Part shown: piece after piece, positions 46,443-51,958 of the stretch | Numbering within the stretch: the first letter of the stretch is position 1 | Layout of the letters: the number at the start of each line of letters is the position of its first letter | Assembly (NCBI RefSeq): GCF_020532805.1 | Contig: NZ_MQTQ01000013.1 | Span: 9,849-73,848, forward strand | DNA length: 64,000 bases | Reading direction: 5' to 3' | DNA from: Arthrobacter sp. SO5 | GTDB taxonomy: Bacteria > Actinomycetota > Actinomycetes > Actinomycetales > Micrococcaceae | The notes under the pieces: generated by a model | What the model was told of the DNA's origin: nothing | Databases searched by the model: none | The model's input: the letters and a program-made list of their open reading frames with translations, nothing else | Position numbers and translations under genes: made by a program

Positions 46443-46955
46443 CTAGTGTCGCTCGAAGATACCGGTCAGGCTCGCCCGGGCCAGGATGTGGGCGCCGAGC
46501 CTCGAGTCGAGCTTGGCCGGGGACGCGGCGGCGTCCAGCCCGGACCGCGCTACGTCCAGCGCCATCACGGTGACGATGTAGCGGTGTGGCCCGTGGCCCT
46601 TGGGCGGCGCCGCGCCGAGGTACCCGGCCGACCCGCCGTCGTTCCTGAGCTGGAACGCTCCTCGGGGTAGGCCGCCGCCATGCCGGGACCCGGCTCCGGC
46701 CGGCAGGGACGCCGTGTCGGCCGGGATATCCAGCACGGCCCAGTGCCAGAATCCGCCGTGCCCGGGCGCATCGGGGTCGAACACAGTGACGGCGTAGCTT
46801 CGGGTTCCGGCCGGGGCGCCGCGCCAGCTCAGGTGCGGCGATTCGTCCGCTGCGCCGGGCCCGGTTGCGGCTCCGCACTGTGCCGGCGGCAGCGTCTGGC
46901 CGTCCTGGAATGACTCACTGCTGACGTGGAAGCTTGGAATACCGGGGTGTGCCAT
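46443..46955 (-). CDS. YbhB/YbcL family (PEBP, Raf-kinase-inhibitor-like) protein
   Basis: This 170-residue protein of the phosphatidylethanolamine-binding family shows the ligand-binding motifs SPHLSWRGAPAGTRSYAVTV (abbreviated PHLSWRGAPAGTRSY) and FDPDAPGHGGFWHWAVLDIP, then a C-terminal GPHRYIVTVMALD. All are as in YbhB/YbcL. Bacterial members bind small anionic ligands, and their roles are poorly known. ATG 46955 is preceded by AAAGGCAGTC. It lies just downstream of the PfkB kinase gene on the same strand, 13 bases away, and is likely co-transcribed. Confidence 0.92.
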   Translation of the reverse strand: MAHPGIPSFHVSSESFQDGQTLPPAQCGAATGPGAADESPHLSWRGAPAGTRSYAVTVFDPDAPGHGGFWHWAVLDIPADTASLPAGAGSRHGGGLPRGAFQLRNDGGSAGYLGAAPPKGHGPHRYIVTVMALDVARSGLDAAASPAKLDSRLGAHILARASLTGIFERH

Positions 46956-46968
46956 GACTGCCTTTCAG

Positions 46969-47943
46969 TTACAAGTTACTCGTGCGGTCAGCGGCCCGGG
47001 CCCCTTGCTCCGTCCGGTTCAGTTCCACCCTGGTGGGCGGGTTGGCGCCGGCCCGGGACACGGTGACGGCTGCCGCAAAGGCGGCGTGGGCCAGGAGATC
47101 GCGGAGCGTCCCGGCGGAAAGTTCACGGAGGCGCTTGCGGTTCTGCGCCCCGGACAAGCCAAGGTCCACCACCCCGGAGAGCAGCGCCGCCATGAATGAA
47201 TCCCCGGCCCCGACCGTGTCCGCGACGGTGACCGAGGGTGCCTTGAAGTGCGCCTCCCCGGCGGCATTGACACCCCACGGCCCTTCGGCGCCGCGGGTCA
47301 CCACCACCATGGCAGGGCCCTCGGAGCCGCCCACGGAGAGCCAGCGCCGGGCGGAATCCAGCGGATCCTCGCCGGGATACAGCCACTCCAGGTCCTCATC
47401 GGAGGCCTTGACCACGTCCGCGAGCGTGACGAACTTTTCCACCTGCCGGCGCGCATAGTCGACGTCGGTGATGATGCTGGGCCGGCAGTTGGGGTCGAAG
47501 CCGATCGTGGCCGAGGGATGGGCATGTTCGACGGCGGCCTGCACCTCGGCGGCGCCCGGCGCCAGCATGGTGGCGATCGAGCCGGTGTGCAGCAGGGTGG
47601 TCCCCTGCAGCATGAACGGCAGCCGGTCCATGAGACCGGGCAGCTCCCACGCGAGGTCGAAGGTGTAACTGGCGGCGCCGTCGTCGTCGATCAGGGCAGT
47701 GGCGACGGACGTGGGCAGCTCATCCGGCGCCAGCGGGAGCAGCACGGAACTGGATTTCAGGTGGGCAGCCAGCGCGTCGCCGTAGGCGTCGCGCCCGTAG
47801 CGGCCGATGAACTGCACCGGATGGTCCAGCCTGGCCAGGCCCACCGCGACATTGAGGGGGCTTCCGCCCACGTGGGCCTGGATACCTGAGGAGCGCTGGA
47901 CCACGTCAACAAGGCCCTCGCCGATTACTGTGAGCATGCTCAT
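46969..47943 (-). CDS. PfkB-family carbohydrate kinase
   Basis: This 324-residue sugar kinase of the ribokinase/PfkB family has signature 1 in GGSPLNVAVGLARL, and signature 2 DTVGAGDSFMAALLSG with the catalytic Asp and anion hole. VVVTRGAEGPWGV contacts ATP. Fructokinase is the closest functional guess from overall pattern, but ribose, 2-keto-3-deoxygluconate or nucleoside substrates are possible. Two in-frame ATGs open the gene (47943 and 47937). It precedes the PEBP gene. Confidence 0.9.
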   Translation of the reverse strand: MSMLTVIGEGLVDVVQRSSGIQAHVGGSPLNVAVGLARLDHPVQFIGRYGRDAYGDALAAHLKSSSVLLPLAPDELPTSVATALIDDDGAASYTFDLAWELPGLMDRLPFMLQGTTLLHTGSIATMLAPGAAEVQAAVEHAHPSATIGFDPNCRPSIITDVDYARRQVEKFVTLADVVKASDEDLEWLYPGEDPLDSARRWLSVGGSEGPAMVVVTRGAEGPWGVNAAGEAHFKAPSVTVADTVGAGDSFMAALLSGVVDLGLSGAQNRKRLRELSAGTLRDLLAHAAFAAAVTVSRAGANPPTRVELNRTEQGARAADRTSNL

Positions 47944-47998
47944 ACTCTGCCAGAGAACACGGCACCGCGCTCCGGCGTTTCGGGCCGGGATGTTTCGT

Positions 47999-49363
47999 TC
48001 AGCCCGAGGGCGCCCGGGCCGTGTCGATGCGGACCCCGGCCGCCTCCGCCTCGTCGAACCTCGCGTCCACGTGGGCCACGTCCCTGCCGGCGCGCTGCAG
48101 CAGGCTGGTGCCGATGCCCGCCCGGTACCCGGAGTGACAGTGCACCCAGAGCTTCCCTGCCGGAACCTCGTCGAGGCGCCGCAGCAGCTCGTGCAGGGGG
48201 ATGTTCACGGCCCCGGCCACCCGCGACACGGCGAATTCATCGGCACGGCGGACGTCCAGGACGGTGTCCGCGGGGGCCCGCCCCGCAAGCAATCCGTCCC
48301 AGCCCACCCGGGGATAGGCCGCGGCGGCGGCCCCGGGTGCCAGCTGGCGGGGGTCGGTTCCGACGGCGGCATCCGGGGAGTCGACGCCGATCCGGGAGAG
48401 GTCACGGATGGCGTTCTCCACGTCCTGGCGGGAGCCGACCAGGGTCAGCGGCTCCGCCCACGGCAACACCCAGCCCAGGTAGGTGCTGAAGCTGTTGCCG
48501 TACTCGAAGCTCACGCTGCCGTTCAAGTGGCTGCTGGCAAACGCCACGCGGTGCCGGAGGTCCACGACCCATTCGCCGGCCGTGAGGCGCCGGGTGAGCT
48601 CGGCGGCGTCCAGCGATTCAGGGACGGCCAGTCGGGCCGGGCCGGGGCCCTGGAGGTTCCCGACCCCCATATGGGCGTAGTAGGAAGGGTAGGCCGTGAG
48701 GTTGGCGATGAGTTCCTGGACGAAGTGCTCCTCGTCCGGGTCCGTGATGGCGTGGTTGGCGGTGAGCTGCTCGCCGATGGTGGAGGACCCCGCACCGCTG
48801 GCCGGGCCCGAGGAGCAAAAGGAACCGAAGCCGTGGGTGGGGAAAAGCGCCGCGTCCTGCGCGGCCTCCCTGACGAGGCGCCGCACCGAGGCGTACTGGT
48901 CATGGGTCAGGCCGATAGTATCGGCGGCCGCGACGAGGTCGGTGCGGCCCACCGAGCCATAGAGCAGGCTGCCGCCGGAGAAGACGGCCTGCTGCCCGCC
49001 GTCGTCCACGATGAACGACAGGTGCGTGTGCGTGTGGCCCGGGGTGGCGACAGCCCTCACGGTCAAGGAGCCGACCCGGACCCTCTGGCCGTCGGTGATG
49101 GGGGTGCGCTCGAAGGTGACCGGGTCCGCGGCGTTGACGAGGTAGCTCGCGCCGTGCGCCTTTGCCAGTTCCAGGCCGCCGCTGACGTAGTCATTGTGGA
49201 TGTGGGTTTCGGCCACATGCGTGATGGTCACGCCCGCGTCGCGGGCGGCCGCTTCGACGCGGTCCGTGTCCCGCTGCGGGTCGATGACAAGCGCCACCGC
49301 TCCGTCATGAACGAGGTAGCTGCGGTCCCCCAGCTGCGGGGTTTCGATGACAATCACTTCCAT
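47999..49363 (-). CDS. MBL-fold/rhodanese protein (persulfide dioxygenase-rhodanese, CstB/Blh-like)
   Basis: This 454-residue protein fuses an N-terminal metallo-beta-lactamase domain to C-terminal rhodanese domains. The metal site begins ETHIHNDYVSGG, and later VATPGHTHTHLSF and the Asp in SFIVDDGG supply further ligands, as in ETHE1-type persulfide dioxygenases. The middle region (about 260-350) is a degenerate rhodanese without active-site Cys. The last 100 residues have an intact loop CHSGYRA. Such proteins oxidise persulfides to sulfite and thiosulfate. It follows a rhodanese gene preceded by a CstR-like operator. Confidence 0.9.
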   Translation of the reverse strand: MEVIVIETPQLGDRSYLVHDGAVALVIDPQRDTDRVEAAARDAGVTITHVAETHIHNDYVSGGLELAKAHGASYLVNAADPVTFERTPITDGQRVRVGSLTVRAVATPGHTHTHLSFIVDDGGQQAVFSGGSLLYGSVGRTDLVAAADTIGLTHDQYASVRRLVREAAQDAALFPTHGFGSFCSSGPASGAGSSTIGEQLTANHAITDPDEEHFVQELIANLTAYPSYYAHMGVGNLQGPGPARLAVPESLDAAELTRRLTAGEWVVDLRHRVAFASSHLNGSVSFEYGNSFSTYLGWVLPWAEPLTLVGSRQDVENAIRDLSRIGVDSPDAAVGTDPRQLAPGAAAAAYPRVGWDGLLAGRAPADTVLDVRRADEFAVSRVAGAVNIPLHELLRRLDEVPAGKLWVHCHSGYRAGIGTSLLQRAGRDVAHVDARFDEAEAAGVRIDTARAPSG

Positions 49364-49434
49364 GATTCACTCCTGCCTGCCCCCTGCCTGCCCCCTCAGC
49401 CGACGGCGGCTGGGGGGTCAGTTCAGCGGCCCAC

Positions 49435-49737
49435 TCAGCCGCGGTCGACCGGGAGTCCGTCGAGCTGCCACTCGTTGATGCCGCCGGTGACGTTGACGGC
49501 GTCGTACCCCTGGTCCGCGAGGTAGGCGGTGGCCTGGGCGCTGCGGGCGCCGGCTGCACACATCACATAGACGGTGCCGCCGGCGGGAACTTCGGCCAGG
49601 GACTGCACGAAGCGGGACAGCGGAATGCTCTGCGTGCCGGGCACCCGGACCTCGGCGAATTCGTCATCCTCGCGGACATCGACAATGGCGGCGTCCTGTC
49701 CCAGCGCTGCCAGTTCCTTGACGGAAATGCTCTTCAT
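49435..49737 (-). CDS. Single-domain rhodanese in sulfide-detoxification operon
   Basis: This 100-residue rhodanese (KSISVKELAALG at the N terminus) has the active-site loop CAAGARS, with the persulfide Cys in VYVMCAAGARS, and ends NVTGGINEW followed by a short tail. It lies 71 bases upstream of the MBL/rhodanese gene on the same strand, with an AAAGGACAACC-type ribosome-binding site. The operator-like ATACCCCCTGGGGTAT is 52 bases upstream of its start. The pair is a likely sulfane-sulfur or persulfide handling unit. Confidence 0.9.
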   Translation of the reverse strand: MKSISVKELAALGQDAAIVDVREDDEFAEVRVPGTQSIPLSRFVQSLAEVPAGGTVYVMCAAGARSAQATAYLADQGYDAVNVTGGINEWQLDGLPVDRG

Positions 49738-49789
49738 GGTTGTCCTTTCGGGCGATGCCGGGTGATCCGGCCGGCGTAGTCCCCCAATG

Positions 49790-49805
49790 ATACCCCCTGG
49801 GGTAT
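49790..49805 (-). promoter_or_regulatory. CsoR/CstR-type operator upstream of the rhodanese/persulfide operon
   Basis: ATACCCCCTGGGGTAT is palindromic at 14 of 16 positions and matches the TACCCC/GGGGTA pattern of CsoR-family operators, notably the persulfide sensor CstR. It lies between the rhodanese start (49737) and the end of nhaA. No CsoR-family gene is seen in the window, so the regulator would be encoded elsewhere. Confidence 0.6.
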
Positions 49806-49837
49806 GAGGAGGTGCCGGGGCCTTGCGCGGGGCCCTC

Positions 49838-51187
49838 TCAGGTCCCCTGCTGGTAGACGTCAGGGATGCCGTCGTGGTCCGAGTCGATCTTCTCTGCTTC
49901 CTCGGCCTTCCGGTACTGCCGGTTCCGGGTCATCAGCACAGCGGACGCCAGCAGCGCCGCGAGCAGGGAGGCCGCGAGGATTCCCACCTTGGCATGGTCG
50001 TCGTGGAGGCTGCCCTGGCCGAAGCTCAGTTCGGCGACCAGGAGGGACACGGTGAAGCCGATCCCGGCCAGGAGCGCCACTCCGAAGATGTCGACCCAGG
50101 TGAACGAGTCATCCAACCGGGCCTTGGTGGCCTTCGTCAGCAGCCACGTGGTGCCGAGAATGCCGGCTGGTTTGCCCAGAACGAGGGCAAGGATGATGCC
50201 GATGGCCACGGGGTCCGCCAGCGCCGAGCGGAGCCCGTCCCAGCCGCCCACCGCGACGCCGGCGGAGAAGAAGGCGAAGACCGGAACGGCCACTCCGGCC
50301 GAGATGGGCCGGAACCGGTGCTCGAAGACCTCCGCCAGCCCGGGTCCGGCATCAGGTCCGCCGCTGGCCTGGGACCGGATCACCGGAACGGCGAATCCGA
50401 GCAGGACGCCGGCCACGGTGGCGTGGATGCCCGAGGCATGAACCAGCGCCCACGTGACCGCACCCAGGGGCAGCAGGATCAGCCACGCCGCAGCGGGCTT
50501 GGTCCCGAAGAAGCGCCGGTACTTCTGGGCCAGGAACGTGTACACCGCGAGCGGGATCAGCGCCAGCAGCAGAGGCGTCGGTTGCAGATCACTCGTGTAG
50601 AAGACGGCGATGATGCTGATGGCGAGCAGATCATCGACGACGGCGAGCGTCAGCAGGAAGATGCGCAGGGCGCTGGGCAGGTGCGAGCCGATGATGGCGA
50701 GCACGGCGACGGCGAAGGCGATGTCGGTGGCCGTGGGGATGGCCCAGCCGCGGAGGGTCTCCGGACTGGCGATATTGACCGCGGCGTAGATGAGCGCCGG
50801 GACCACCACTCCGCCGACCGCGGCAGTGACGGGAACGATTGACTTGTTCAGCTGCCGCAGATCCCCCGCCACGAATTCCCGTTTGAGCTCGAGTCCGACC
50901 AGGAAGAAGAAGATGGCCAGGAGCCCGTCGGCGGCCCAGGCCCCGAGGCTCAATTCGAGGTGCCAGGGCCCGTAGCCGACCGTGAAGTCGCGGAGGGCGA
51001 AGTAGCTGGCCGAGATCGGCGAGTTGGCCCAGATGAGGGCGATCACAGCGGCCGATACCAGCAGGGCGCCGCCGACTGTTTCCTTGCGGAGGATTTCGCC
51101 GATCCGGAGGGATTCCGCGTAGCTGCCGCGGCCGAACACGCTGAGGCGCGGCGGGGCGGGAGGCGGTGTGGAAGGGGGGGTGCTCAT
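49838..51187 (-). CDS. nhaA: Na+/H+ antiporter NhaA
   Basis: This 449-residue NhaA exchanges Na+ for H+ across the membrane. The essential paired aspartates appear as VVDDLLA (185-186). [12 protein letters not shown] matches the TM4 unwound segment and [12 protein letters not shown] the conserved TM2 region. There are about 12 helices. The C terminus is about 40 residues longer than E. coli NhaA and ends with [10 protein letters not shown] (435-444), a DxDxDGxxD calcium-binding-type loop. The N-terminal 15 residues are Pro-rich. It sits next to a potassium uptake pair. Confidence 0.93.
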
Positions 51188-51262
51188 GCGGCAGTCCTAA
51201 AATTGGGTCGACGGAACTATGCCGACCAGACTTCCCGGCGCACCAGAGCCCACTCTACCGGG

Positions 51263-51958
51263 TCAGGGCATGATGCTGAATTGTTCAGCTTTTGCTTTGC
51301 TGCCTTGGACGATGATCTGGTCGTCGTCGTAGAGGGTGGTTTGGGCAGTGGTGTGACCCCAGGTCCCGCCGGGGCGCTTGACTGCCACGATCGTGACGCC
51401 GTACTTCTCCCGGAGTCCGAGCACGCCTAGCGGCCGGTCGCGGACGCTCGCGGGCGGGCTGGTCCTGATCATCACGAAGTCGTCCTCGAACTCGACGTAG
51501 TCGAGGATCGAGCCGAGGACCAGGTGGGCGACGCGCTTTCCCATGTCGTGTTCCGGCCGGATGACGTGTTCGACGCCGAGCTGGCCGAGGATTTCGGCGT
51601 GGGGTTCGCTGATGGCCTTGGCCCAGATCTGCGGATGGCGGAACGTCAGGATCCTCGACGTCGTGAGGATGCTCGCCTCGATGTCCGAGCCGATCCCCAC
51701 CACCGCCCGGTCAAATTCATGGACCGAGAGCTGGCGGAGCACTTCCTCCTTGGTGGAATCGGCCCTGACCACATGGGTCAATCGGCCGTTGAAGGACTGC
51801 ACAATCTCCTCGTTGGCGTCGATGCCCAGCACCTCGGTGCCCTGCGCCTCCAGCTCCAGGGCGAGGGAACCGCCAAAACGGCCAAGGCCGATGACCACCA
51901 CGGAAGATGCCTTGGCGATCGTTCCGGCGCTGCGTGCGGAGAAGATGTTCCTAGCCAA
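51263..51958 (-). CDS. Potassium uptake regulatory subunit, TrkA/KtrA family (RCK)
   Basis: This 231-residue protein has an RCK_N Rossmann domain with GLGRFG at 24-29 and an acidic residue at the end of strand 2 (VLGID), typical for NAD/ATP-nucleotide binding. A TrkA_C domain (PPASVRDRPLGVLGLREKYGVTIV, abbreviated RDRPLGVLGLREKYG) follows. It gates the neighbouring KtrB-type channel from the cytoplasm. The start is TTG 51958, overlapping the ktrB stop by 8 bases, with AAAGG upstream. Confidence 0.92.
   Translation of the reverse strand: MARNIFSARSAGTIAKASSVVVIGLGRFGGSLALELEAQGTEVLGIDANEEIVQSFNGRLTHVVRADSTKEEVLRQLSVHEFDRAVVGIGSDIEASILTTSRILTFRHPQIWAKAISEPHAEILGQLGVEHVIRPEHDMGKRVAHLVLGSILDYVEFEDDFVMIRTSPPASVRDRPLGVLGLREKYGVTIVAVKRPGGTWGHTTAQTTLYDDDQIIVQGSKAKAEQFSIMP

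What the first reader, a model, noticed from the sequence alone, without database searches (positions are those of the whole stretch)
49435..49805. CstR-like operator ahead of a persulfide-handling rhodanese operon
ATACCCCCTGGGGTAT (49790-49805) matches the CsoR/CstR operator pattern and sits 52 bases upstream of a rhodanese, followed by an MBL-fold/rhodanese fusion of the CstB kind. In Staphylococcus, CstR senses persulfides and controls such genes. No CstR gene is present in the window, so the sensor is remote. This predicts a sulfide-inducible operon.
Basis: partly seen in the sequence, partly recalled or inferred. Interest (0 to 1): 0.6.

Follow-up and report, generated by a model that had tools for sequence, protein, structure and literature searches.

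The report
Remotely controlled persulfide-handling operon
A soil bacterium keeps two sulfur-detoxifying genes under a DNA switch whose sensor gene lies elsewhere in the genome, and one extra base pair in that kind of switch appears to mark copper control instead of sulfur control.

Summary
The palindrome ATACCCCCTGGGGTAT is real, 52 bp before the start of a two-gene minus-strand operon: a small rhodanese, then an MBL-rhodanese-rhodanese protein. The genome has four CsoR-family genes: two CstR-type (Cys-Gly-Cys, no copper His; one beside a cst-like cluster, one orphan), each preceded by 16-bp sites of this form, and two copper-type.
In 198 genomes of the genus, the exact 16-mer (N2 spacer) occurs in 101 of 122 genomes with CstR and 0 of 76 without; the 17-mer (N3) seen before copper-type genes occurs in 118 of 122 and 71 of 76. 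So one base pair separates persulfide-type from copper-type operators, and the window site is of the persulfide type. The operator is kept in 14 of 17 orthologous loci; two of the three losses are in genomes without CstR.
The likely mechanism is that shown for ScCsoR in Streptomyces coelicolor, with the sensor moved away. One defining feature fails: Gly stands where dioxygenases carry the iron-binding Asp, in 114 of 114 relatives examined, so "CstB-like" holds for architecture, not yet for chemistry. Binding and expression were not tested.

The parts
49790..49805 (.). 16-bp CstR-type operator ATACCCC-N2-GGGGTAT (TAC-X8-GTA)
   Evidence: conserved in 14 of 17 orthologous loci
49787..49792 (-). 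likely -10 box TATCAT overlapping the operator
   Evidence: sequence; same TATCAT in G019, G050 and, without the palindrome, in G010; inferred, the consensus promoter scan finds none
49435..49737 (-). single-domain rhodanese, 100 aa
   Evidence: PF00581 52.5 bits
47999..49363 (-). MBL-rhodanese-rhodanese protein, 454 aa, CstB-like layout, Gly131 at the iron-ligand Asp position
49388..49421 (.). inverted repeat between the two genes, function unknown
49838..51187 (-). flanking nhaA (context, not part of the regulon)
   Evidence: PF06965; found upstream in 15 of 17 loci
46969..47943 (-). flanking pfkB-family kinase (context)
   Evidence: PF00294; found downstream in 17 of 17 loci

Best explanation
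The window holds an outlying member of a persulfide (sulfane sulfur) regulon. A CstR-type repressor made elsewhere in the genome (the orphan gene at C81:36888, the cst-cluster gene at C78:36542, or both) binds the 16-bp palindrome, which overlaps a likely -10 box, and blocks transcription of the rhodanese and the MBL-rhodanese-rhodanese gene. When persulfides or polysulfides rise they modify the repressor's two cysteines, it leaves the DNA, and the two sulfur-handling proteins are made. SHOWN here: the site, the operon, the two CstR-type genes with their own 16-bp sites, conservation of the operator, and its dependence across genomes on CstR and not on copper-type CsoR. INFERRED: binding, effector, repression, promoter position and the enzymes' reactions.
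For: Two CstR-type genes (C-G-C at the sensor positions) in the own genome, with 16-mer sites upstream. In 198 genus genomes the exact 16-mer is in 101 of 122 CstR+ and 0 of 76 CstR- (Fisher 9e-36); the 17-mer is in 118 of 122 and 71 of 76. Copper-type CsoR is in 81 of 81 genomes checked, so it cannot explain that pattern. Best site before the sensor genes, leaving out three CstR genes from loci that had been chosen by the 16-mer: 34 of 36 C-H-C genes N3, 1 N2, 1 none; of 78 C-x-C genes 57 N2, 3 tied with N2, 1 N3, 17 none (with those three, 60 of 81). Operator kept in 14 of 17 orthologous loci; two of the three losses are in genomes without CstR. It stands before the first gene whether that is the rhodanese (3 loci) or the PDO-like gene. 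30 of 30 genus 16-mer loci examined (one per genome, of 230 exact sites in 101 genomes) have a PDO, rhodanese, TauE, CstR or DUF302 gene within 1.5 kb. Precedent: ScCsoR binds the 16-bp ATACC-n6-GGTAT before a PDO gene and is released by polysulfide (PMC7533328).
Against: No binding or expression data. The genomes are related, so the Fisher value overstates independence. One orthologous locus (G047) has CstR but no site, and its orphan CstR gene carries a 17-mer. 21 of 122 CstR+ genomes have no exact 16-mer; 17 of 78 CstR-type genes have no site within 260 bp. The sigma-70 scan finds no promoter. The enzyme lacks the iron-ligand Asp. Which of the two CstR proteins acts cannot be told.
Confidence: 0.87

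Rival explanations
1. The site is a copper CsoR operator and the operon answers copper.
For: The half-sites are identical to those of copper CsoR sites, and the genome has two copper-type CsoR genes.
Against: Copper-type sites have one more base pair: 34 of 36 CsoR genes have N3; 17-mer loci class-wide lie by copper genes in 25 of 30 and by sulfur genes in 0. The 16-mer is in 0 of 76 genomes without CstR, although copper-type CsoR is in 81 of 81 genomes checked. One CsoR gene (L129) does have a 16-mer beside a 17-mer.
Confidence: 0.05
2. The palindrome is a chance sequence or part of the nhaA 3' end with no regulatory role.
For: It lies 33 bp past the nhaA stop codon; no consensus promoter is found.
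Against: Expected 0.013 per genome; kept 47-77 bp before the first gene in 13 loci and at 149 bp in one; lost in the two loci whose genomes have no CstR.
Confidence: 0.04
3. The CstR-type protein binds the site but senses something else (another thiol oxidant or electrophile), so the operon belongs to a general thiol-stress response.
For: In other Actinomycetes some exact 16-mers lie close to thioredoxin, peroxiredoxin and Rv2466c-like genes; S. aureus CstR also reacts with HNO (PMC5480029).
Against: In this genus all 30 loci examined are persulfide-type; ScCsoR is released by polysulfide.
Confidence: 0.15

Closest known systems
ScCsoR sulfane-sulfur circuit of Streptomyces coelicolor (PMC7533328; passages and section 7 read)
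   Same: CsoR-family repressor with two cysteines; 16-bp ATACC-n6-GGTAT site; PDO-like gene with rhodanese domain; rhodanese; TauE. In five other Streptomyces loci read here (L065, L069, L073, L078, L084; also L091) small rhodanese, window-type PDO-like gene, rhodanese-TM, TauE and CstR follow in that order with 16-mers.
   Different: There the sensor is adjacent; here the two genes sit alone between nhaA and pfkB, with the sensors on other contigs.
CstR / cst operon of Staphylococcus aureus (PMC5480029 and PMC9774590, passages)
   Same: CsoR-like persulfide sensor with Cys31 and Cys60; targets include cstA, cstB and tauE.
   Different: S. aureus CstR is said to regulate directly a single operon, which includes sqr; here 16-mers stand at separate loci. 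I did not search this genome for SQR.
Arthrobacter plasmid 'SUL module' (PMC6305408, passages)
   Same: CsoR-family regulator, sulfur dioxygenase, rhodaneses, TauE/SafE and DUF302 in one cluster, much like C78.
   Different: Described from annotation; no operator or remote operon in the passages seen.
TTHA1953 of Thermus thermophilus (PMC10318464, passages)
   Same: CstR-like sulfur regulator whose targets lie far from its gene; one base more or less between its repeats cuts affinity about 10- to 15-fold.
   Different: Other DNA motif; controls sox genes.
Copper CsoR of Streptomyces lividans (PMC3902906, passages)
   Same: Same half-sites.
   Different: TAC-X9-GTA spacing and copper genes; the Cys-His-Cys sensor pattern was checked here only in the loci of this study.

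Membership tests
CstR-type (persulfide-sensing) CsoR-family repressor: the two candidate sensors | DUF156/PF02583 domain | tested here: met
   79.5 and 82.3 bits against a cut-off of 22.8
CstR-type (persulfide-sensing) CsoR-family repressor: the two candidate sensors | two sensor cysteines without the copper-binding His | tested here: met
   C-G-C in both; C-H-C in the two copper-type CsoRs. That this pattern defines the subfamily is recalled.
CstR-type (persulfide-sensing) CsoR-family repressor: the two candidate sensors | 16-bp operator ATACC-n6-GGTAT by the own gene | tested here: met
   C78: two sites at 0 and 1 mismatch; C81: one site at 2 mismatches
CstR-type (persulfide-sensing) CsoR-family repressor: the two candidate sensors | gene lies by persulfide genes | tested here: inconclusive
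   met for C78; not for C81, and no rhodanese, PDO or TauE hit in any of the 17 C81-type loci L178-L194 within 1.5 kb, contig ends allowing, though one C81-type gene (G178, L097) does lie by rhodanese-TM and TauE
CstR-type (persulfide-sensing) CsoR-family repressor: the two candidate sensors | release from DNA by persulfide or polysulfide | not testable with these tools
   needs protein and EMSA
CstB / type III persulfide dioxygenase | MBL domain followed by rhodanese domains | tested here: met
   3tp9 and 3r2u are the best hits by sequence and fold; Pfam names the MBL and the last rhodanese only, the middle domain is from the fold match
CstB / type III persulfide dioxygenase | 2-His-1-Asp iron site | tested here: not met
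   His54 and His110 kept (113 of 114), Asp replaced by Gly131 in 114 of 114 relatives; in AcPDO, D130 variants keep 0.5-2% activity
CstB / type III persulfide dioxygenase | rhodanese active-site Cys | tested here: met
   C409 and R414 in 113 of 114
CstB / type III persulfide dioxygenase | persulfide dioxygenase activity | not testable with these tools
   needs an O2-uptake assay
Copper CsoR operator | 17-bp TAC-X9-GTA site | tested here: not met
   the window site is TAC-X8-GTA
ScCsoR sulfane-sulfur circuit | sensor gene adjacent to the PDO gene | tested here: not met
   no PF02583 match on contig C10

The most novel reading that the evidence does not exclude
The MBL-rhodanese-rhodanese protein belongs to an actinobacterial branch that has lost the iron carboxylate ligand for good (Gly in 114 of 114 examined) yet stays under persulfide control. 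It would then work by another chemistry: a 2-His metal site with an open coordination position, or a non-oxidative persulfide transferase. Around it, a one-base-pair spacer code (TAC-X8-GTA against TAC-X9-GTA) keeps the persulfide and copper regulons of these bacteria apart.
Probability: 0.35. Interest if true: 0.68.

Novelty: new variant of a known kind. Interest (0 to 1): 0.55.

Why it matters
CsoR-family operators look nearly alike. If the X8/X9 rule holds at the bench, persulfide regulons could be read straight from actinobacterial genomes, including genes of unknown function such as DUF302, and it would show two paralogous repressors with the same half-sites kept apart by one base pair. 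The Gly at the metal site marks a group of dioxygenase-like proteins whose reaction should be checked.

Tried and rejected
Copper CsoR as the regulator: set aside on spacer length and co-occurrence. Chance palindrome: set aside. The own-genome 16-mer with 1 mismatch at C54:135498 lies between two tRNA-Asn genes and is unexplained; a near-site at C81:11454 lies by a multicopper oxidase and was not pursued. Consensus promoter scan: nothing. Rfam on 46900-51300: 0 hits. The 13 papers listed for Arthrobacter + CstR look from their titles to be about other things, mostly reactors and the like. Searches for a statement of the spacer rule show none in the listings; only listings, and passages of a few of those papers, were seen, and three key papers are not held, so I do not claim it is unpublished. 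The search for a Gly-type dioxygenase listed 10 of 1,905 papers and none of the titles is about it.

Counts and losses. In one search two reference proteins (C78 CstR, DUF302) were out of frame, so those labels were not used; the check was redone in frame. In some searches one CsoR was given one base off and found nothing; redone. Three CstR genes counted lie in loci chosen by the 16-mer (L097, L108, L112); one search leaves them out. Class-wide, loci of 29 (16-mer) and 30 (17-mer) genomes were examined, out of 49 and 84 genomes with a match among 197; labels rest on hits to my own reference proteins within 1.5 kb. Of the 29: 17 sulfur, 1 labelled copper (L243, whose gene 26 bp from the site is a pyridine-nucleotide oxidoreductase with part of a rhodanese domain), 11 neither; of those 11, 5 have a thiol-redox gene near the site (L245, L254, L259, L265, L266) and 6 stay unexplained (L242, L246, L251, L252, L257, L258). 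Of the 30: 25 copper, 5 neither, not followed up. L017, L018 and L020 were left out of the 17-locus count as duplicates of G024, G046 and G053. Among the 114 window-type rows one aligns badly (different residues at the His positions), and 106 are distinct. Of 11 C78-type rows 8 have Asp, 1 Glu, 2 a gap at the ligand position. Rfam, PHROGs and PADLOC were not used further.

Full report
What is there. On the minus strand of the window, a 16-bp palindrome with perfect arms at 49790-49805 ends 52 bp before the ATG of a 100-aa rhodanese (49737-49435), followed after 71 bp by a 454-aa MBL-rhodanese-rhodanese protein (49363-47999). Upstream lies nhaA, downstream a pfkB-family kinase, on the same strand. 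The window sits on contig C10 of a 3.83-Mb genome.

The remote sensors. The genome has four PF02583 genes, none on C10. The site (C10:59638 of 82,466) lies 22.8 kb from the nearer end of its contig, so the sensor is at least that far away. C78:36542 is CstR-type (C-G-C). It is followed by a DUF302 gene and faces a divergent MBL-rhodanese, rhodanese-TM and TauE cluster, with 16-mers at C78:36834 (1 mismatch) and C78:36902 (exact) between them. C81:36888 is a second CstR-type gene, 71% identical, with no sulfur gene recognised in the 4.4 kb read and a 16-mer with 2 mismatches upstream. C47 and C4 are copper-type (C-H-C); each lies by an ORF that looks like a copper P-type ATPase (by eye), and the C47 gene is preceded by the 17-mer ATACCCCTAGGGGGTAT.

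The one-base-pair rule. Across 198 genomes of the genus, the exact 16-mer is present in 101 of 122 genomes with CstR and 0 of 76 without; the exact 17-mer in 118 of 122 and 71 of 76. The reversed control of the 16-mer hit 1 of 198 genomes. Copper-type CsoR was found in 81 of 81 genomes checked. Upstream of the sensor genes, leaving out three CstR genes from loci chosen by the 16-mer, the best site is N3 in 34 of 36 CsoR-type genes (1 N2, 1 none) and N2 in 57 of 78 CstR-type genes (3 tied with N2, 1 N3, 17 none). The N2 case among the CsoR genes (L129) is in a genome whose nhaA and pfkB are split between frames, so a sequencing indel is possible. Class-wide, 17-mer loci have copper-type genes in 25 of 30 and sulfur-type genes in 0; 16-mer loci have sulfur-type genes in 17 of 29, copper-type in 1 and neither in 11, of which 5 have thiol-redox genes. 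The two halves of the rule are in print separately: ScCsoR (sulfane sulfur) binds ATACC-n6-GGTAT (PMC7533328) and S. lividans copper CsoR sites share TAC-X9-GTA (PMC3902906). I did not find them contrasted, but key papers are not held. Relatedness of the genomes inflates the significance.

Conservation of the window operator. In 17 distinct window-type loci (own, 12 further genomes at 80% identity or more, 4 named strains), nhaA is found upstream in 15 and pfkB downstream in 17. The small rhodanese is present in 3 (own, G019, G050); an 18th locus outside this set (L106) also has it. A 16-mer with at most 2 mismatches stands before the first gene of the unit in 14 of 17, 47-77 bp from the start codon in 13 of the 14. 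Three loci have none: G047, which has CstR, and G010 and G032, whose genomes have no CstR hit. In G010 the TATCAT box is still in place and the palindrome is gone. This is what is expected of an operator that is useless without its repressor.

Which CstR. The C81-type gene occurs in 41 of 198 genomes, 92-100% identical; these genomes carry a mean of 3.8 exact 16-mers against 0.9 in the other CstR+ genomes. It is in 11 of 13 genomes with the window-type gene and in 6 of the other 68. All 11 also have a second CstR, so the choice between the two stays open. It is an orphan in the own genome and in the loci L178-L194, but lies by sulfur genes in at least one genome (G178, L097).

The enzyme. The fold model (mean pLDDT 88.4) matches 3tp9 over its full length (TM 0.87-0.88) and S. 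aureus 3r2u (that 3r2u is CstB is recalled, not from a call). Against persulfide dioxygenases the two iron His (54, 110) are kept, but the Asp ligand (AcPDO D130) is Gly131. This holds in 114 of 114 window-type sequences (106 distinct) from loci of Arthrobacter, Streptomyces, Mycobacterium, Pseudonocardia and others; of 11 Asp-type relatives 8 have Asp, 1 Glu and 2 a gap, and the C78 paralogue has Asp. In AcPDO, D130 changed to Ala, Glu or His keeps 0.5-2% activity (PMC6060420, passages). So either another residue serves (His114 is invariant in A2, but the C78 paralogue has His there too), or the reaction differs. ScPDO is active on GSSH (PMC7533328 section 7), but whether it carries Asp or Gly I could not see.

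How it most likely works. Persulfide rises; CstR's two cysteines are modified; the repressor leaves a site that overlaps the likely -10 box; the rhodanese and its partner are made and pass on or oxidise the sulfane sulfur. Steps shown: site, genes, sensors, dependence of the site on CstR. Steps inferred: binding, effector, promoter, reactions. I did not search the genome for SQR and recognised none among the ORFs printed for C78; the ScCsoR authors contrast their circuit with those that have SQR and PDO. The direct signal is therefore more likely sulfane sulfur than sulfide.

Extra regulon member. DUF302 is present in 98 of 122 CstR+ and 0 of 76 CstR- genomes. In two genomes it stands near a 16-mer of its own (L105, about 230 bp; L117, 50 bp before the start). 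Its presence in such clusters has been noted from annotation (PMC6305408).

Verdict. It is a known kind of circuit in a new arrangement, with a generalisable spacer rule and an unexplained change at the metal site.

Noticed in passing
L009:5100-5510 (own genome C78), L105, L117: DUF302 gene tied to CstR: in 98 of 122 CstR+ and 0 of 76 CstR- genus genomes; in two genomes it stands near a 16-mer of its own. Candidate persulfide-handling protein of unknown function.
   Followed up: partly
window 47999-49363, residue 131: The iron-ligand Asp of persulfide dioxygenases is Gly in all 114 relatives of the MBL-rhodanese protein that were examined.
   Followed up: partly
window 49388-49421: Inverted repeat (15-nt arms, 87% complementary, 4 nt between) overlapping an 11-nt tandem duplication between the rhodanese and the PDO-like gene; possible processing or attenuation element.
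   Followed up: no
L011:3999-4014 (own genome C54:135498): 16-mer with 1 mismatch between two tandem tRNA-Asn genes; chance or an odd regulon member.
   Followed up: no
L245, L254, L259, L265, L266: Exact 16-mers in other Actinomycetes lie close to thioredoxin, CoA-binding, 1-Cys peroxiredoxin and Rv2466c-like genes, suggesting a wider thiol-redox regulon.
   Followed up: partly
G014, G031, G081: Genomes with 9 to 11 exact 16-mers, i.e. large putative persulfide regulons.
   Followed up: no
L178-L207 and L148-L177: Tandem sites are often 21 bp apart before CstR genes and 24-25 bp apart before CsoR genes.
   Followed up: no
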